Shown here piece by piece: positions 47,394 through 55,047 of a stretch of DNA of 64,000 bases. The DNA lies in contig JAFLBF010000009.1 in NCBI GenBank assembly GCA_017303895.1, forward strand, positions 1 through 64,000, given 5' to 3'. A program made the position numbers and the translations under genes. The first letter of the stretch is position 1. The number at the start of each line of letters is the position of its first letter. The DNA comes from Bacteroidota bacterium (GTDB lineage Bacteria; Bacteroidota; Bacteroidia; 2-12-FULL-35-15). Below the pieces are notes generated by a model. It made no database searches. It was given only the letters and a program-made list of their open reading frames with translations, and had not been told where the DNA came from.

Positions 47394-47708
47394 ATGAAAT
47401 CGTACCTCATTATTTTTACAATTGTAGCAACACTACTTACATCATGTAAAACAAAAGAAGCAACAACATCAAATACTATGGGAAAAACATCAGGAAAAGT
47501 ATCTCATGAATACAAAGCAGGAGGCTGTTCTGCTGTTATTGTAACCAGTGATGGTGTTACCTTGATCCCAAAAGATGCACTTAAAAAAGAATTTGACGTA
47601 GATGGCTTAAATGTAACATTTGATTACATAACGCTTAAAATGCCACAACCGGCAGGTTGTACGACCGGCATACCGGCTGAGATCTCAAATCTTGGAAAAG
47701 CAAAATAA
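47394..47708 (+). CDS. Small lipoprotein of unknown function (module copy 1)
   Basis: 104 residues with a lipobox LLTSC. The mature part has SHEYKAGGCSAVIV, TLIPKDALKKEFDVDGLNVT and MPQPAGCTTGIPAEISNL, with two cysteines that could bond. I recall similar lipoproteins in other Bacteroidota but no function. It is followed by a terminator (47734-47757) and then the PPP-tail protein. The later pair 54060/54505 repeats the order of lipoprotein then PPP protein, although the two lipoproteins are not clearly homologous. Confidence 0.75.
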   Translation: MKSYLIIFTIVATLLTSCKTKEATTSNTMGKTSGKVSHEYKAGGCSAVIVTSDGVTLIPKDALKKEFDVDGLNVTFDYITLKMPQPAGCTTGIPAEISNLGKAK

Positions 47709-47733: not shown

Positions 47734-47757
47734 AAATCCCAGCATTTGCTGGGATTT
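47734..47757 (+). terminator. Terminator of the small lipoprotein gene
   Basis: A perfect 11-bp stem (AAATCCCAGCA / TGCTGGGATTT) with a 2-base loop, then Ts, 25 bases after the stop. Confidence 0.82.
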
Positions 47758-47762
47758 TTGTT

Positions 47763-47803
47763 ATACAACAAGTTGTATTAATTAAATCTATTTATTAAAT
47801 TTG
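47763..47803 (+). promoter_or_regulatory. Promoter overlapped by a palindromic operator candidate
   Basis: TTG (47773-47775), 20 bases, TAAATTTG (47796-47803): a full consensus promoter 17 bases upstream of the ATG at 47821. A perfect 16-base palindrome ATACAACAAGTTGTAT (47763-47778) covers the TTG. A regulator bound here could block or recruit polymerase. This would control the PPP protein and perhaps the TonB receptor beyond. Confidence 0.55.
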
Positions 47804-47820
47804 TGTAGCACAACAATTCT

Positions 47821-48348
47821 ATGATGAAGTCCGCTATTTCGTTTTTTCTTCTTACTATATTCCTATTTAACATAGCGGGATATGTTATAGTATTCAAAAT
47901 TTCTCAAAATCTAATTCGAAAAGAAATAAAGAGAGAAATTAAAATGAAACTGAATGAATCTGAATTGCAAAAAATTGTTTTCAATAAAAATGAACTTAGC
48001 ACAATCAATTGGCTGAAAATCGATAAAGAATTTATTTATGACAGTGAATTATTTGACATTGTCAAAACAACTGAAACTGCAACGACTATTACTTACTATT
48101 GCATTAATGACAAACAGGAGAAACAATTATTTGCAGATTTAGATGAACACATTAACCAACATATTGCAACTAATAAAACAAATAAAAAAAACACATTTAA
48201 ACAATATGATGACAGTAACAAAATTTCATATGAGTTGAAAATTAAAATTGATTCTAATATTGGCAAGCCAATAGAAAGAGTTTGGTTATACAATTACAAT
48301 TCAGAATCAATTGTTTTAGCTAAAAACAGCCCTCCTCCTCGACTTTAA
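47821..48348 (+). CDS. Membrane-anchored protein with C-terminal PPP tail (copy 1)
   Basis: 175 residues. One N-terminal hydrophobic helix (ISFFLLTIFLFNIAGYVIVF) acts as an anchor or uncleaved signal. The soluble part has basic helices, then INWLKIDKEFIYDSELFDIV, TTETATTITYYCINDKQEK and ends NSPPPRL. The protein at 54505 shares FLFN..GY..VFK, a Y...LYDI/LFDI..KTET segment, the YCINDK..E motif and a PPP near the end, so they are paralogues. Such proteins occur next to TonB receptors in other Bacteroidota from memory. The TonB receptor starts 127 bases on. No function known. Confidence 0.78.
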   Translation: MMKSAISFFLLTIFLFNIAGYVIVFKISQNLIRKEIKREIKMKLNESELQKIVFNKNELSTINWLKIDKEFIYDSELFDIVKTTETATTITYYCINDKQEKQLFADLDEHINQHIATNKTNKKNTFKQYDDSNKISYELKIKIDSNIGKPIERVWLYNYNSESIVLAKNSPPPRL

Positions 48349-48475: not shown

Positions 48476-50905
48476 ATGCAAAACCGTATGTTGGCTATTG
48501 CGATGATGTTATTTACAATCATCGCAAAAGCTCAAATAGTAACTGTAATAGACAAGAATACTCAACAAACAATTCCTGGAGTTGTGGTTTACTCAAATAA
48601 CCCACAATTATCATCGCAAACAAATGCGAAAGGTCAATTCGATTTGTCTGTTTTTAAAGCTGCTGACACTATTAATTTTAAAATAGTGAGTCATATTTTA
48701 ACATCATATACATATGGTCAAATTGAAGCATTAAAATATAAGGTCGAGTTGGCGGATAATCCAATTTCTCTATCTGAAGTTGTTGTATCATCTACCAAGT
48801 GGGAGCAAAAAAAAATAGAAACGCCCAACAGAATTGTATCAATAAACATGAAAGAAGCTGCGTTTCAGAATCCACAAACATCAGCTGATTTACTAGGAAT
48901 GAGCGGTTATGCTTTCATCCAAAAAAGTCAATTAGGAGGAGGTTCTCCAATGCTAAGAGGGATGGCAACCAATAGAGTACTACTAGTCATTGATGGAGTA
49001 AGAATGAATACAGCCATTTTTAGATCTGGAAACTCACAAAATGTAATTTCTCTTGACGCAAATGCTATGGAAAGTACAGAAATTTTGTTTGGCCCCGGTT
49101 CTGTTATGTATGGAAGTGACGCGGTCGGAGGTGTAATGAGCTTTACAACCATCCAGCCCAGGCTTTCAGAATCTGAAGATAATAAGCCTTTATTAACAGG
49201 AAACGCAATGACTAGAATTTCAACTGCCAACTCTGAAAATACCGGGCATTTAGACTTTAATGTAGGTTTCAAGAAATTAGCATTAACAACGAGCTTTACA
49301 TATTCGAAATATGGTGACTTACGCTCAGGTTCTGTTGGTGGTGCTTCTTATTTCTACCGTAAAAACTACGTTATAACCTATGACGATAGGGATTACATGT
49401 TGCCAAACAATGACTCTACACTTCAAGTCGGTTCTAATTATAGTCAGGTTAATTTTTTGCAAAAAATTCGTTTTCAACCAATCAAGCATTTAGATATTGA
49501 ATATGGATTTCATTTTTCTGAAACGTCAAAATACAATCGCTATGACAGGCTTTATGTGATGCAAACATCTGGTCCATACAAGAACAAATTACGTTGGGCA
49601 GAATGGTATTATGGTCCACAAAAATGGCAAATGCACAGAATTGGTATTACTTATAACAAAAGCAATATTTTATTCGATAAAATGAAACTTATTGCTGCGT
49701 ATCAATTTTTTGAAGAAAGCAGATATGATCGTGAGTTTATGTTTAGAGAATTGCGAATGCAAAAAGAAAATGTTGATGCTTACTCATTAAACATTGATTT
49801 TGAAAAAAGAGTACTTGAAAAGGTTACTTTATCATACGGATTTGAATCAGTTTACAATAAAGTATCTTCAGTAGCATCTTTAACACATGTAATTACCGAT
49901 GAGATCACACCTACTGTTACCCGTTATCCAGATGGTTCAACATGGCAATCGAATGGACTGTACCTAACTGCAAAATACCAACCTCATCCAAAATGGACAA
50001 TTAATGGAGGCTTGCGTTACAATCACTTTTTGATTAAAGCTGATTTTGATACAACATTCTTTCCTTTTCCATTTACAAGCACAAAAATGTCAACCGGTTC
50101 TTTTAGTGGAAGCTTAGGATTTGTTTATTCACCACAGCCATCTTGGCAAGTATATGCGAATGGATCAAATGGATTTAGAGCACCTAACATTGATGACATG
50201 GGAAAAGTATTTGAATCTGTTCCAGGTTACTTAGTTGTTCCTAATCCGGATTTGAAACCAGAACAAGTATACAATGCGGAACTAGGAACTGTAAAAACAT
50301 TCAGTAGATTCATTAAAGTAGATGCAACCATTTACAATACCTGGCTAAGAGATGCAATGGTTAGAAAAAATGCTGAATTTAATGGTGATACAACCATTAG
50401 ATACCTTGGAAACAAAAGCAGGATTCAATCAATACAAAATGTAGCTAAAATTAATGTATATGGAATTCAAGCGGGTATAGAATTATACTACAAAGGAATC
50501 GGTCTTAAAAGCAACATCTCTTATCAAAATGGAAAAGAACAAGCACCTGATAGTTTGGTCTATTATCCCCTTCGACATGCTGCACCAACTTTTGGAAGTA
50601 CCCATTTGACCTATGAACATAAAAAATTTAAATTTGATTTATATGCTGTTTATAATGCCAAAATGGATTATGAAAATTTGGCACTAACGGAAAGAACAAA
50701 CGCATCATACGCTCGTGATGAAAAAGGAAATGCGTATGTAAAAGAATGGTATACTCTAAACTTTAAAGCAGGTTTTTATCCATCCCAATACATAGCATTA
50801 ACGGCTGGAGTTGAAAATATTACTGATTTAATGTATCGTCCATACTCCTCTGGAATTAATGCACCAGGTAGAAATTTTATTGCATCATTAAGAGCAAAAT
50901 TTTAA
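48476..50905 (+). CDS. TonB-dependent outer-membrane receptor, haem/haemoglobin-receptor-like
   Basis: 809 residues with a signal peptide (MQNRMLAIAMMLFTIIAKAQ). A carboxypeptidase-regulatory-like beta domain (about 20-95: TPGVVVYSNN-type and NAKGQFDLSVF) precedes the plug (about 105-220: LSEVVVSSTKWEQ; GGGSPMLRGMATNRVLLVID, then GVRMN; YGSDAVGG) and the beta-barrel, ending in Phe (NFIASLRAKF). It imports a ligand using TonB/ExbBD energy. The GSPMLRGMATNRVL and GVRMN..FR.GN segments look like haem or haemoglobin receptors; the ligand is not proven. Two RCC1-propeller genes follow with gaps of 21 and 11 bases, so all three are probably one operon. Confidence 0.93.
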   Translation: MQNRMLAIAMMLFTIIAKAQIVTVIDKNTQQTIPGVVVYSNNPQLSSQTNAKGQFDLSVFKAADTINFKIVSHILTSYTYGQIEALKYKVELADNPISLSEVVVSSTKWEQKKIETPNRIVSINMKEAAFQNPQTSADLLGMSGYAFIQKSQLGGGSPMLRGMATNRVLLVIDGVRMNTAIFRSGNSQNVISLDANAMESTEILFGPGSVMYGSDAVGGVMSFTTIQPRLSESEDNKPLLTGNAMTRISTANSENTGHLDFNVGFKKLALTTSFTYSKYGDLRSGSVGGASYFYRKNYVITYDDRDYMLPNNDSTLQVGSNYSQVNFLQKIRFQPIKHLDIEYGFHFSETSKYNRYDRLYVMQTSGPYKNKLRWAEWYYGPQKWQMHRIGITYNKSNILFDKMKLIAAYQFFEESRYDREFMFRELRMQKENVDAYSLNIDFEKRVLEKVTLSYGFESVYNKVSSVASLTHVITDEITPTVTRYPDGSTWQSNGLYLTAKYQPHPKWTINGGLRYNHFLIKADFDTTFFPFPFTSTKMSTGSFSGSLGFVYSPQPSWQVYANGSNGFRAPNIDDMGKVFESVPGYLVVPNPDLKPEQVYNAELGTVKTFSRFIKVDATIYNTWLRDAMVRKNAEFNGDTTIRYLGNKSRIQSIQNVAKINVYGIQAGIELYYKGIGLKSNISYQNGKEQAPDSLVYYPLRHAAPTFGSTHLTYEHKKFKFDLYAVYNAKMDYENLALTERTNASYARDEKGNAYVKEWYTLNFKAGFYPSQYIALTAGVENITDLMYRPYSSGINAPGRNFIASLRAKF

Positions 50906-50926
50906 AAACTAACTAAAAAAGACAAA

Positions 50927-52393
50927 ATGAAAAAAAACTTTCAACTATTTTCTGTTGTTACAATCCTAGCAGTAATAAGTTTATCAACTAGCGCTAATGC
51001 TCAACGCATAGCTGCTGGAGGATGGCATTCTGTAGTAGTTTGTAACGATAGCACCGTAAAAGCATTTGGCGAAAATGCAACTGGTGAACTAGGAAATGCA
51101 TCGAATACTGATAGTAATGTTCCAGTAACCGCAATCGGTTTATCAAAAATTATTGCCGTTTCAGGTGGTGGTGATCAACTAGAAGCACATTCTATGGCAC
51201 TCAAAAATGATGGAACCGTTTGGGCTTGGGGTAGTAATTTGTATGGTGGCTTAGGTAATGGCAACACAACTAATACTAATACTCCGGGACAGGTTCTATT
51301 GCTAACGAATGTAATAGCCATCTCTGCAGGTGGTTGGCATTCAACAGCTTTAAAAAGCGATAGTACTGTTTGGACTTGGGGCTGGAACATTGATGGGCAG
51401 ATTGGAGACGGAACGTTAGTCGACAAAACAATCCCAACAATGGTACCCGGACTTACTAGCGTAAAAGAAATAGCAGCAGGAACATATCATGTTTTGGCGC
51501 TTAAAAGTGATGGAACGGTATGGGCTTGGGGAGATAATGTAAGTGGTCAAATTGGTGATGGATCTACCACAGATAGAACCTCACCTGTTCAGGTTACAGG
51601 CTTAACAAATGTTGCACACATTGCAGCTGGTCGTTTTTTCTCTTTAGCCGTTAAAACGGATGGTACTGTGTGGACCTGGGGCGAAAATCTTTATGGACAG
51701 CTTGGAAATGGGACATTAACAGATAGTCATGTCCCTGTACAAGTGACAGGATTAACAGGAATAACATCTGCAACTGCAGCTACCGGTGCATTCCATTGCA
51801 TGGCTGTAAAAAATGACAATACAGTTTGGGCTTGGGGAAGAAACACCTATGGAAATTTAGGAGATGGAACAGTCACACACAGATCTACTCCTGTTCAGAT
51901 GCAAGGAATTTCAGATGTAGTTGGACTGGCTGCCGGAACCAATTTTTCTTTATTATTCAAATCAGACGGAACATTTTGGGGCTGTGGAAGAAATGCAAGT
52001 GGCCAATTAGGAGATGGCACATTTTTGCAACGCAACACTGTAGTACAAGCAACTGCAATGTGTCCGATATTGCTACCAGAAGAACCTGTTGGAATTGATG
52101 CAGTAGAAAATACAAACATCTCTCAAATAGTTGCATACCCAAATCCATCTACAACTGGAGAATTTACAGTAATGATAAAAAATAATTCATTGAATACACA
52201 ATCTACAAACAAATGTAAAATTGAAATTTACAACATAATTGGCGAACTCATATTTCAATCTGAATTAAATCAGCAACAACTGAATTCTCCAATTCAAATT
52301 GATCTATCTAATAAATCAAATGGTGTTTACTTCTTAAACACAATAATTGGTAATACTAAATTCAATCAAAAACTCATTATACAAAATAATTAA
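50927..52393 (+). CDS. T9SS-exported RCC1 seven-bladed propeller, first copy
   Basis: 488 residues with a signal peptide (ending TSANA before QRIAAGG). Seven RCC1-type blades of about 52 residues fill roughly 28-385; each has VWAWG.N..GQLGDGT..D...PVQV and an AAG..HSLALK.DGT core. A type A sorting domain ends the protein (IVAYPNPSTTGEFTVMI; NKSNGVYFLNTI). It should be secreted through T9SS to the surface. It follows the TonB receptor by 21 bases. Its tight linkage suggests a role in capturing the receptor ligand or a protein partner; that is inference. Confidence 0.9.
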   Translation: MKKNFQLFSVVTILAVISLSTSANAQRIAAGGWHSVVVCNDSTVKAFGENATGELGNASNTDSNVPVTAIGLSKIIAVSGGGDQLEAHSMALKNDGTVWAWGSNLYGGLGNGNTTNTNTPGQVLLLTNVIAISAGGWHSTALKSDSTVWTWGWNIDGQIGDGTLVDKTIPTMVPGLTSVKEIAAGTYHVLALKSDGTVWAWGDNVSGQIGDGSTTDRTSPVQVTGLTNVAHIAAGRFFSLAVKTDGTVWTWGENLYGQLGNGTLTDSHVPVQVTGLTGITSATAATGAFHCMAVKNDNTVWAWGRNTYGNLGDGTVTHRSTPVQMQGISDVVGLAAGTNFSLLFKSDGTFWGCGRNASGQLGDGTFLQRNTVVQATAMCPILLPEEPVGIDAVENTNISQIVAYPNPSTTGEFTVMIKNNSLNTQSTNKCKIEIYNIIGELIFQSELNQQQLNSPIQIDLSNKSNGVYFLNTIIGNTKFNQKLIIQNN

Positions 52394-52404
52394 TATTCTC
52401 AATC

Positions 52405-53850
52405 ATGGTAAATATATACAATAGAAATTTTAATAAGCCGAACAGCAGATTAAAATCAATTAAAACAATTTTCATTGCAATTGTTGCAATTATTAGCTCA
52501 AATACAAAAAGCTTTTCACAGCAAATTTCAGCAGGATGGTCTCATACATTGTATCTATGCAATAATGGCTCTACTGCAAATGCTTGGGGAGCAAATGCAT
52601 TTGGACAAGTTGGAGATGGCACCACAACTGATAAATCACTACCCGTATCTGTCAATGGTACTACCAATATAAAAGCAATTCAAGCTGGCTACCAACATAC
52701 ACTTATTCTAAAAAATGATAGTACGGTTGAAGCATGGGGCGATAATACAGATGGACAGCTAGGTAATGGGAATAATACAAGTACTACCTCACCTGTGCAA
52801 GTCAGTGGTCTTTCTAATGTAATTGCCATTTCTGGTGGCACTGCAGGGTATCACTCTCTTGCATTGAAATCGGATGGTACCGTTTGGGCTTGGGGAAGAA
52901 ATACAGATGGCCAATTGGGTGATGGCACCAATGTAAGTAAAAATATACCGACTCAAATTACCGCATTAACTGGTATTATTGCAATATCCGGAGGTGAATA
53001 TCATTCGCTTGCTATCAAAAATGATGGAACTGTGTGGGCTTGGGGAAGAAATAACAAAGGGCAATTAGGAAATGGGACTACTGTAAGTAGTAACGTTCCT
53101 GTTCAAGTTAATACACTTACATCCATTACGGCCATTGCTGCAGGAAGATACTTCTCTATTGCTCTTAAAAGTGATAGCACAGTTTGGACCTGGGGAGAAA
53201 ATCTGTACGGACAATTAGGAAATGGTACTACTGTTGACAGCAATACACCTGTCCAAGTTTCTGGATTGACTGATGCTACTGCAATTGCTGGTGCGGCATT
53301 TCATTGTCTTGTTATAAAAAGTGATAGTACTTTAGTATCATGGGGAAGAAATACATACGGTAATCTTGGAAATGGAACAACAACCAACAGCTCCACTCCT
53401 ATTTCTGTAAGCAATCTTACAAGTGTTGTTGCTATTGCTGGTGGAACAAACTATTCTGTTGCTATGAAAGCGAACGATTCGCTATTCACTTTTGGAAGAA
53501 ACACAAATGGGCAACTTGGTGATGGTACTACCACTGATCGTTATATTCCTACCCCTGTATTATCATTATGCGCTGTTCCAACTGAAATAGCAGAAAATAA
53601 TTTAACAGACTCAAATATTATTTTTGTTTTCCCTAATCCATCCTCAAATGGCATCTTTCAACTTATAAGCAACAGCAATAAAATCATTACAATTGAAGTA
53701 TTTAATATGTTAGGAGAAAAAATCATGAATACCACAAATAATAATACACCAACAGATTTAATTGATTTATCAACCCATGCAAATGGTATTTATTTGATGA
53801 CTATTAAATCCGAAAATAATATAGTTTATCAAAAATTGATCAAGCAATAA
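52405..53850 (+). CDS. T9SS-exported RCC1 seven-bladed propeller, second copy
   Basis: 481 residues. The N-terminus (MVNIYNRNFNKPNSRLKSIK) is longer and more polar before the hydrophobic TIFIAIVAIISSNTKSFSQ signal. Seven RCC1 blades follow (AWGRNTDGQLGDGTNVSKN; TWGENLYGQLGNGTTVDSN) and a type A tail (IFVFPNPSSNGIFQLISN; THANGIYLMTIKS). It is a clear paralogue of the preceding gene, 11 bases away, with blades five and six most alike, so the pair arose by duplication. Many identical short blocks make local recombination possible. The operon ends at the terminator 53861-53896. Confidence 0.9.
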   Translation: MVNIYNRNFNKPNSRLKSIKTIFIAIVAIISSNTKSFSQQISAGWSHTLYLCNNGSTANAWGANAFGQVGDGTTTDKSLPVSVNGTTNIKAIQAGYQHTLILKNDSTVEAWGDNTDGQLGNGNNTSTTSPVQVSGLSNVIAISGGTAGYHSLALKSDGTVWAWGRNTDGQLGDGTNVSKNIPTQITALTGIIAISGGEYHSLAIKNDGTVWAWGRNNKGQLGNGTTVSSNVPVQVNTLTSITAIAAGRYFSIALKSDSTVWTWGENLYGQLGNGTTVDSNTPVQVSGLTDATAIAGAAFHCLVIKSDSTLVSWGRNTYGNLGNGTTTNSSTPISVSNLTSVVAIAGGTNYSVAMKANDSLFTFGRNTNGQLGDGTTTDRYIPTPVLSLCAVPTEIAENNLTDSNIIFVFPNPSSNGIFQLISNSNKIITIEVFNMLGEKIMNTTNNNTPTDLIDLSTHANGIYLMTIKSENNIVYQKLIKQ

Positions 53851-53860
53851 ATTTTCAAAA

Positions 53861-53896
53861 AACACTCAGTGCTTTCACAAATAGGCACTGAGTGTT
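53861..53896 (+). terminator. Terminator of the TonB receptor/RCC1 operon
   Basis: A 12-bp stem (AACACTCAGTGC / GCACTGAGTGTT) with a 12-base loop, 10 bases after the stop. Confidence 0.8.
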
Positions 53897-54059: not shown

Positions 54060-54503
54060 ATGGTAAGATCATCCTTTATAGGTATGCTAATTGCTGCCTC
54101 GTTATTTTTTTCATGCAAAACAAAAAAAAGTGCAACAACAGAAATGTATCATTCTAATTCCGAAATAGAAAATGTCATTTTGAAAACAGAATTAAATATT
54201 TCTGAAATGAAGTCAAATTATAAAATTGATTCAATTGCAATAAACAAAGATATATTGTCTGTTTTTGTAAATTATTCCGGAGGGTGTCAAAAGCATAAAT
54301 TCGAGTTACTATTCAATGGCATGTATGCAAAATCACTTCCCCCACAAGCAACACTGTATTTAAACCATATTAGCAATGATGATTTATGCAAGAAACAAAT
54401 ATTTCAAGAAGTACGTTTTAATATTGCATCTGTTTTAAATGAAAAATACACAGAAATTTATATAACAGTTGGGGAGTTTAAAATTAAATACACAAAAAAA
54501 TAG
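54060..54503 (+). CDS. Small lipoprotein with GGCxxH motif (module copy 2)
   Basis: 147 residues with a lipobox LFFSC. The mature part includes INKDILSVFVNYSGGCQKHK, then FELLFNG, and a second cysteine in SNDDLCKKQIF; strands alternate to the end (TEIYITVGEFKIKY). The YSGGCxxHxF motif is one I have seen in other Bacteroidota lipoproteins with no assigned role; Cys and His could bind a metal, which is a guess. The next gene begins one base after its stop, so they are coexpressed. Confidence 0.75.
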   Translation: MVRSSFIGMLIAASLFFSCKTKKSATTEMYHSNSEIENVILKTELNISEMKSNYKIDSIAINKDILSVFVNYSGGCQKHKFELLFNGMYAKSLPPQATLYLNHISNDDLCKKQIFQEVRFNIASVLNEKYTEIYITVGEFKIKYTKK

Positions 54504-54504
54504 A

Positions 54505-55047
54505 TTGAAAAAAATAATTGCCATATTTCTTCTTTTCATTTTCCTATTCAATTCAATAGGATACTATGCTGTTTTTAAATTTTCGGAATACCAAATAAAA
54601 AAAACAGCCAAAAGAGCTGTATTTGCTAACCTAGATGATTCACAATATGAAATTATTACTATCAATAAAAACGATTTAGATAAAATTGAATTTAAAGACG
54701 ATGGCAAGGAAATAATCTATAAAGATCAATTATACGACATCGGAAAAAAAACTGAAACAGAAACAGAAATTGTGTTGTATTGTATAAATGATAAAGATGA
54801 AGAAGCACTCATAAGTAGTTTAAAAACACACATAGACAATCACATAGCATTTTTTAAAACTAAAAAAAGCAGTTCTGGCCAGAAAAAAAACAGCGACAGC
54901 TCTTCTCTAAAAATTTATTTGAAAAACAAACAAGATTCAAACGTTTTCCATGAAAATACAGAGCAGAGTTATTCTAAACAAAAGAATATAATTTATATAT
55001 CTGCACTCAAAGAAATCAGCACACCACCTCCTGAATCAGGCTGCTAA
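54505..55047 (+). CDS. Membrane-anchored protein with C-terminal PPP tail (copy 2)
   Basis: 180 residues from a TTG one base after the preceding stop, giving (M)KKIIAIFLLFIFLFNSIGYY; an earlier TTG at 54469 would overlap that gene and put polar residues before the helix. After the membrane helix come FKFSEYQIKKTAKRAVFANL, EIIYKDQLYDIGKKTETETE, VLYCINDKDEEAL and a Ser/Lys-rich linker, ending TPPPESGC. It is the paralogue of the protein at 47821 and is slightly longer. The terminal Cys behind PPP is notable. Function unknown. Confidence 0.72.
   Translation: MKKIIAIFLLFIFLFNSIGYYAVFKFSEYQIKKTAKRAVFANLDDSQYEIITINKNDLDKIEFKDDGKEIIYKDQLYDIGKKTETETEIVLYCINDKDEEALISSLKTHIDNHIAFFKTKKSSSGQKKNSDSSSLKIYLKNKQDSNVFHENTEQSYSKQKNIIYISALKEISTPPPESGC

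What the first reader, a model, noticed from the sequence alone, without database searches (positions are those of the whole stretch)
48476..53850. TonB receptor linked to two T9SS-exported RCC1 propellers: a possible capture-and-uptake cassette
Sequence: a TonB-dependent receptor, then two paralogous seven-bladed RCC1 proteins with type A sorting tails, with gaps of 21 and 11 bases and one terminator at the end. Known: TonB receptors usually pair with SusD-like lipoproteins or haemophores; RCC1 propellers are protein-interaction folds. Inference: the secreted propellers may bind a host or environmental protein and hand its ligand to the receptor, a surface analogue of haemophores.
Basis: partly seen in the sequence, partly recalled or inferred. 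Interest (0 to 1): 0.65.

Follow-up and report, generated by a model that had tools for sequence, protein, structure and literature searches.

The report
Receptor with secreted β-propeller partner proteins
This bacterium has an outer-membrane nutrient receptor whose gene is followed by two genes for secreted β-propeller proteins; the receptor and its first propeller stay side by side in nine lineages, so they probably work together, much as known lipoprotein 'lids' catch vitamins or iron carriers for their receptors, although contact and cargo are unproven.

Summary
In detail: a TonB-dependent receptor (TBDR) and two seven-repeat RCC1 proteins with type A T9SS tails lie head to tail with 21- and 11-bp gaps. 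The linkage is not accidental. In relatives, all nine TBDRs of one supported clade (60-69% identical to the window's) have an RCC1 ortholog directly downstream, and every RCC1 ortholog of at least 58% identity in 395 class genomes sits there. More distant TBDRs lack RCC1; none of 26 unlinked RCC1 genes has this type of TBDR nearby. Linked RCC1 proteins share an invariant insertion (GGDQLEAHS); all 20 strictly clade-specific TBDR residues lie in extracellular loops or strand tops. The second RCC1 gene recurs in one other genome. Best explanation: a T9SS-delivered propeller that captures ligand for, or caps, its TBDR, working like the lipoprotein propellers BtuG and XusB. Haem specificity is not supported: neither the plug nor the FRAP-NPDL region has a histidine. 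A fused AlphaFold model did not dock the two (pTM 0.61). Verdict: a real conserved cassette, new variant of a known kind; contact and ligand unproven.

The parts
47734..47757 (+). Intrinsic terminator-like hairpin that separates the unit from the upstream lipoprotein gene
   Evidence: 10-bp stem then T run, called on both strands
47796..47803 (+). Possible Bacteroidota -7 box TAAATTTG, with GTTG at 47772-47775 (spacer 20); candidate promoter of the unit
   Evidence: Read by eye from sequence against the Bacteroidota consensus known to me; a strict scan did not list it because the -33 box is imperfect; weak
47821..48348 (+). 'SPPP' protein: N-terminal membrane helix, small beta domain, disordered tail ending PPPRL; the most widespread neighbour of the TBDR
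   Evidence: Family member within two genes upstream in 51 of 77 TBDR loci; conserved E70, D79, D97, E100, P172, P173; no Pfam/NCBIfam family above cut-off; AF2 pLDDT 81, no significant PDB fold match
48476..50905 (+). TonB-dependent receptor, 22-stranded barrel with CarbopepD_reg-like N-terminal domain
   Evidence: Pfam/NCBIfam, AF2 barrel and Foldseek to PhuR/OprC/ChuA
50927..52393 (+). RCC1a: signal peptide, 7 RCC1 repeats, T9SS type A tail; ortholog beside the TBDR in 9 of 9 clade members (one truncated by a contig end)
   Evidence: Pfam; neighbourhoods
51170..51198 (+). Codons of the GGDQLEAHSMA signature: insertion in blade 2, invariant in linked RCC1a and absent in unlinked RCC1
52136..52381 (+). 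T9SS type A C-terminal sorting domain of RCC1a
   Evidence: PF18962 5.7e-13 at residues 404-485; TIGR04183
52405..53850 (+). RCC1b: second 7-repeat RCC1 protein with T9SS tail; groups with the second RCC1 of the G371 cassette
   Evidence: Pfam; tree support 1.000 with G371_b
53626..53841 (+). T9SS type A C-terminal sorting domain of RCC1b
   Evidence: PF18962 8.9e-12 at residues 408-479
53861..53896 (+). Terminator-like hairpin after RCC1b (weak T run)
54481..55047 (+). Second SPPP paralog (about 40% identical to the first), not followed by a TBDR

Best explanation
The locus encodes one functional unit at the cell surface. The TBDR is the outer-membrane importer. RCC1a, and here also its paralog RCC1b, is a seven-bladed propeller carried through the outer membrane by the T9SS and left on the surface, where its type A tail would be removed. 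There it docks on the extracellular loops of the TBDR and captures the ligand or caps the barrel, raising the rate or affinity of uptake; TonB then drives import. Shown here: gene order, domains, clade-wide linkage, co-inheritance, private conserved features on both partners, presence of SprA. Inferred: docking, capture, surface anchoring. Not known: the ligand (the TBDR is nearest to haem-type receptors but lacks histidine where ShuA/ChuA-type receptors have their haem ligands), and the role of the upstream SPPP membrane protein.
For: (1) All nine TBDRs of one clade (support 1.000) have RCC1a directly downstream on the same strand; seven closest TBDRs outside it (56-58% identical to the window's) and the other 78 genome-contig loci do not. 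Every RCC1a ortholog of at least 58% identity in 395 class genomes lies next to this TBDR. (2) None of 26 unlinked RCC1 genes has this type of TBDR within two genes. (3) TBDR and RCC1a distances correlate at r = 0.92 (Mantel 0/10000). (4) All 20 strictly clade-specific TBDR residues fall in extracellular loops or strand tops (background 44%, p = 5e-8; control clade 8/12, p = 0.10), clustered in L3, L7 and L8. (5) Linked RCC1a shares an invariant GGDQLEAHS insertion and invariant W33, W137, Y187, F237, F289 and F340 in the AGxxH loops; W137 aligns with the Trp of UVR8's GGW-R-H-T motif, a protein-contact face by established knowledge. (6) T9SS is present: SprA and 145 type A tails. (7) Solved precedents for 7-bladed propeller capture lids on TBDRs: BtuG-BtuB (PMC10404256) and XusB-XusA (PMC13142918).
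Against: AF2 on a TBDR-RCC1a read-through construct gave pTM 0.61, no confident placement (only two paired rows, so inconclusive). RCC1 is dispensable for the wider TBDR family, which is widespread without it. Co-inheritance shows linkage, not contact. Loop divergence could reflect a new ligand rather than a docked protein. RCC1a lacks the lipid anchor that tethers BtuG and XusB. No ligand is indicated. The aromatic-loop pattern is only moderately unusual: aromatic residues also occur at this position in unlinked RCC1 proteins.
Confidence: 0.48

Rival explanations
1. Co-transcribed but physically independent: RCC1a/b are T9SS surface adhesins or binding proteins that serve the same niche or regulation as the TBDR without touching it.
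For: RCC1-T9SS proteins occur in many genomes of the class away from this TBDR. Close RCC1-less TBDRs have an unrelated T9SS protein (M43 peptidase with PKD/reelin-like domains) just downstream in G026, G011 and G003, so the slot can hold other surface proteins. An RCC1 T9SS protein was found in the Flavobacterium psychrophilum extracellular proteome (PMC5682007).
Against: Exclusive pairing of one RCC1 ortholog with one TBDR clade over about 30-45% divergence; tight 9-64 bp spacing; clade-specific extracellular TBDR residues; private conserved RCC1 insertion.
Confidence: 0.27
2. RCC1a is a cap or shield that protects the TBDR mouth from phages, bacteriocins or proteases rather than capturing ligand.
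For: TBDRs are common phage and bacteriocin receptors (established knowledge); a docked cap would also explain the extracellular clade-specific residues.
Against: No specific sequence evidence; known propeller partners of Bacteroidota TBDRs bind the imported ligand.
Confidence: 0.1
3. Haemophore system as first proposed: RCC1 propellers take haem or haemoproteins and hand haem to a haem-type TBDR.
For: TBDR scores best with TIGR01785/TIGR01786 (197 and 185 bits, below cut-offs of 317 and 324); best folds PhuR, OprC, ChuA; FRAP/NPDL motif present. T9SS-secreted gingipains act together with HmuY/HmuR in P. gingivalis haem supply (PMC10100897).
Against: No histidine in plug residues 95-229 or between FRAP and NPDL, where ShuA/ChuA-type receptors have their haem ligands; OprC (copper) fits about as well as haem receptors; no haem gene noticed in the neighbourhood.
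Confidence: 0.1
4. Hitchhiking: TBDR and RCC1 stay together only because they move or are inherited as one DNA segment.
For: Patchy occurrence within the genus: of 36 genus genomes only the window's has an RCC1a ortholog above 50% identity; genus-type SPPP beside a TBDR-RCC1 pair whose closest relatives lie in other families.
Against: Adjacency survives 30-45% divergence with otherwise different flanking genes; the two partners carry private conserved extracellular features.
Confidence: 0.05

Closest known systems
BtuG-BtuB (vitamin B12 uptake, Bacteroides; PMC10404256)
   Same: A seven-bladed beta-propeller partner of a TBDR in Bacteroidota, encoded beside it; in BtuBG it caps the barrel and passes ligand to the transporter.
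   Different: BtuG is a surface lipoprotein of another propeller family and the TBDR is BtuB-type. Here the propeller is RCC1, has no lipid anchor and carries a T9SS sorting tail; the TBDR is nearest to haem-type profiles; docking and ligand are unproven.
XusB-XusA (xenosiderophore uptake, Bacteroides; PMC13142918)
   Same: Seven-bladed propeller encoded beside a TBDR; XusB has a ligand-binding insertion ('hook') in blade 2, and RCC1a has an invariant insertion in its second repeat.
   Different: XusB is a DUF4374 lipoprotein and the locus includes a PepSY protein; no PepSY or DUF4374 hit was found among the genes scanned here, the RCC1a insertion is only 4 residues, and its role is unknown.
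HmuY-HmuR with T9SS gingipains (P. gingivalis haem supply; PMC10100897)
   Same: Surface or secreted proteins, some T9SS-exported, work with a haem-type TBDR.
   Different: HmuY is not an RCC1 propeller; gingipains are proteases; the window TBDR lacks His at the usual haem-ligand segments.
HasA-HasR haemophore system
   Same: Secreted capture protein delivered to a TBDR (functional analogy; HasR is among the fold matches).
   Different: HasA is not a propeller; unrelated protein family and secretion route.
UVR8 / RCC1 / HERC propellers
   Same: Same seven-bladed fold (part of the model matches UVR8 with TM 0.86).
   Different: Eukaryotic intracellular proteins; no T9SS tail, no TBDR partner.

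Membership tests
TonB-dependent receptor | Plug plus 22-stranded beta-barrel | tested here: met
   PF07715 and PF00593 above cut-off; 22 strands in the AF2 model (assigned by me)
Haem/haemoglobin receptor (TIGR01785/TIGR01786) | Score above curated cut-off | tested here: not met
   196.8 vs 316.85 and 185 vs 323.75 bits
Haem/haemoglobin receptor (TIGR01785/TIGR01786) | Histidine haem ligands in the plug and between FRAP and NPNL | tested here: not met
   No His in residues 95-229 or in FRAPNIDDMGKVFESVPGYLVVPNPDL; ligand positions are from general knowledge of ShuA-type receptors
RCC1 seven-bladed propeller | About seven RCC1 repeats | tested here: met
   7 PF00415 stretches in each of RCC1a and RCC1b
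T9SS type A cargo | C-terminal Por_Secre_tail plus signal peptide, in a genome with T9SS | tested here: met
   PF18962 and TIGR04183 above cut-off; signal-like N-termini (by eye); SprA present. Export itself not tested
BtuBG/XusAB-type propeller-capped TBDR | Propeller gene conserved beside the TBDR | tested here: met
   9 of 9 clade members
BtuBG/XusAB-type propeller-capped TBDR | Propeller is a surface lipoprotein (lipobox Cys) | tested here: not met
   RCC1a signal-like N-termini end in AQ or GQ before the first repeat, with no lipobox by eye, in 8 of 8
BtuBG/XusAB-type propeller-capped TBDR | Propeller docks on the barrel mouth | tested here: inconclusive
   Fused AF2 model pTM 0.61; indirect support from extracellular clade-specific residues
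BtuBG/XusAB-type propeller-capped TBDR | Propeller binds the imported ligand | not testable with these tools
   Needs biochemistry
XusABC | PepSY inner-membrane protein in the operon; DUF4374 propeller | tested here: not met
   No PepSY or DUF4374 hit in the scanned genes around the TBDR
SusCD | SusD-like lipoprotein next to the TBDR | tested here: not met
   No SusD hit in the neighbours scanned

The most novel reading that the evidence does not exclude
A class of TonB-dependent transporters whose ligand-capturing propeller lid is delivered by the type IX secretion system instead of being a lipoprotein, so that T9SS export and TonB import act together in one uptake machine, with an uncharacterised PPP-tailed membrane protein as a further part of the transporter.
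Probability: 0.38. Interest if true: 0.72.

Novelty: new variant of a known kind. Interest (0 to 1): 0.52.

Why it matters
Propeller-capped TBDRs have been described with lipoprotein lids. A T9SS-delivered RCC1 propeller conserved with one TBDR clade would show that a second export route can supply such partners. It would also give a first testable role to some of the many RCC1 proteins exported by T9SS in Bacteroidota, and it points to an overlooked small membrane protein that is the TBDR family's commonest neighbour.

Tried and rejected
Haem specificity: considered because of TIGR01785/6 and PhuR/ChuA matches, rejected as unproven for lack of histidines in the expected segments. Complex prediction: the TAA stop was read as Gly to fold TBDR(91-809)+RCC1a(1-395) in one chain; pTM 0.61, no docking, inconclusive. 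SPPP protein: no Pfam/NCBIfam family above cut-off, no significant PDB fold match. Literature: no paper found in the held library that links RCC1 proteins to TBDRs; the Leptospira and F. psychrophilum hits concern other contexts. Retrieval by the DQLEAHS DNA pattern in 395 phylum genomes found only the window, so the cassette is rare. Composition gives no sign of recent transfer: RCC1 and TBDR GC3 is like the neighbours'. 'General TBDR+RCC1 association in Bacteroidota' is rejected: RCC1 is confined to one TBDR clade.
Full report
OBSERVATION. The first is a TBDR (Plug, barrel, CarbopepD_reg-like N-terminus). The other two each have seven RCC1 repeats and a type A T9SS tail and are 47% identical. 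A hairpin follows at 53861-53896. The genome has SprA and 145 type A tails, so a T9SS gene next to a TBDR is not remarkable by itself.

IS THE LINKAGE CONSERVED? I searched relatives with the TBDR and with RCC1a separately. In 395 genomes of the class, the RCC1a orthologs at 58-68% identity are the window's and seven others (G371, G172, G263, G147, G260, G102, G082), and all lie next to a TBDR 61-69% identical to the window's. A ninth case, L077 (66%), ends in an RCC1a start 29 bp after the TBDR. In every complete case the order is SPPP protein - TBDR - RCC1a on one strand, TBDR-RCC1a spacing 9-64 bp once a sensible start is chosen for G263 (in G147 a short extra ORF overlaps the SPPP-TBDR junction). 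TBDRs outside this group (56-58%: G002, G003, G011, G016, G026, G040, G211) have no RCC1 after them, nor do the other 78 of the 80 genome-contig loci. In a tree, the RCC1-linked TBDRs form one clade with support 1.000. Conversely, 26 other RCC1 genes, most with T9SS tails, have no TBDR of this type within two genes. Within the genus's 36 genomes only the window's has an RCC1a ortholog above 50% identity.

CO-INHERITANCE. Pairwise distances of TBDR and RCC1a correlate at 0.92 (Mantel 0 of 10000). RCC1b of the window groups with a second RCC1 gene (837 aa, 14 repeats) in the G371 cassette, support 1.000, so the a/b duplication is older than this genome, though only two of the nine are seen to have both. 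The window's SPPP proteins are 35-45% identical to those of close genus members but only 16-26% to those of the other cassettes. In genus relatives the SPPP-TBDR pair sits between a rhomboid-like gene and an M43-T9SS gene (L061). In the window's own genome that site has the rhomboid-like gene and the M43-T9SS genes (57% identical) but only 231 bp between them and no SPPP-TBDR. The simplest reading, an inference, is that the RCC1-linked TBDR displaced the resident one and does the same kind of job; base composition does not show a recent transfer.

MARKS OF A SHARED SURFACE. I folded TBDR residues 91-809 with RCC1a 1-395 as one chain by reading the TAA stop as glycine. The barrel has 22 strands; relative placement is not confident (pTM 0.61), as expected with two paired rows, so this neither supports nor refutes contact. 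With that topology I asked where residues invariant in the nine linked TBDRs and rare (at most 10%) in 41 others lie: 20 of 20 are in extracellular loops or strand tops (background 44%, p = 5e-8), mainly L3, L7 and L8; a control clade of seven unlinked TBDRs gives 8 of 12 (p = 0.10). On the RCC1 side, all eight complete linked RCC1a proteins, and the L077 fragment as far as it goes, have the insertion GGDQLEAHS in the second repeat, absent from RCC1b and from five unlinked RCC1 proteins. The AGxxH loops carry invariant W33, W137, Y187, F237, F289 and F340. W137 aligns with the Trp of UVR8's GGW-R-H-T motif (entry 8gqe carries Ala there), which I know as the UVR8 dimer face. Aromatic residues at this position also occur in unlinked RCC1 proteins, so the insertion is the stronger mark.

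LIGAND. The best profiles are TIGR01785/TIGR01786 (haem/haemoglobin) but below cut-off. The best folds are PhuR, OprC (copper) and ChuA. Neither the plug (residues 95-229) nor the FRAP-NPDL segment contains a histidine, where ShuA/ChuA-type receptors have their haem ligands (general knowledge).

KNOWN SYSTEMS. BtuG (PMC10404256) and XusB (PMC13142918) are seven-bladed propeller lipoproteins that capture ligand and sit on their TBDRs. The window system works like these in architecture but fails one defining feature (lipoprotein) and is untested on two (docking, ligand binding), so I do not file it as a member. RCC1 T9SS proteins have been seen in an extracellular proteome (PMC5682007); no paper found in the held library links them to TBDRs.

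MECHANISM. Most likely (0.48): T9SS delivers the RCC1 propeller to the surface, where it docks on the TBDR loops and captures or gates the ligand. Rivals: independent co-expressed surface protein (0.27), shield (0.10), haemophore proper (0.10), hitchhiking (0.05).

LIMITS. All linked genomes other than the window carry only handles or are metagenome-assembled genomes; whole contigs of some are short. The structure-based residue classes rest on a model with mean pLDDT 72. The identity thresholds were seen before the clade was named; the tree gives the same split.

Noticed in passing
window 47821-48348 and 54481-55047; A5 alignment: Uncharacterised 'SPPP' family: about 175-190 aa, N-terminal membrane helix, small beta domain, disordered tail ending in PPP; within two genes upstream of this TBDR in 51 of 77 loci across Bacteroidota and related lineages, with no Pfam/NCBIfam family above cut-off or PDB fold.
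   Followed up: partly
L206:5351-5583 (own genome C4): The genus's usual SPPP-TBDR site is empty in this genome: 231 bp between the M43-T9SS gene and the rhomboid-like gene.
   Followed up: yes
L061:8676-11408, L063:5273-8038, L065:146-2989: In three genus relatives the slot after the RCC1-less TBDR holds a T9SS M43 metallopeptidase with PKD/reelin-like domains.
   Followed up: partly
window 54060-54503 and 47394-47708: Small lipoprotein-like genes with GGC motifs precede each SPPP gene; no family above cut-off.
   Followed up: no
L058:7082-8197 (own genome C3): An RCC1 protein with a lipoprotein-like signal and no T9SS tail, unlike the other RCC1 copies.
   Followed up: no
L175-L183: RCC1-repeat proteins encoded on viral contigs, up to 53% identical to RCC1a.
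   Followed up: no
L164:4448-6961: A double-length (14-repeat, 837 aa) RCC1 protein with one T9SS tail, apparently a fused duplicate of RCC1b.
   Followed up: no
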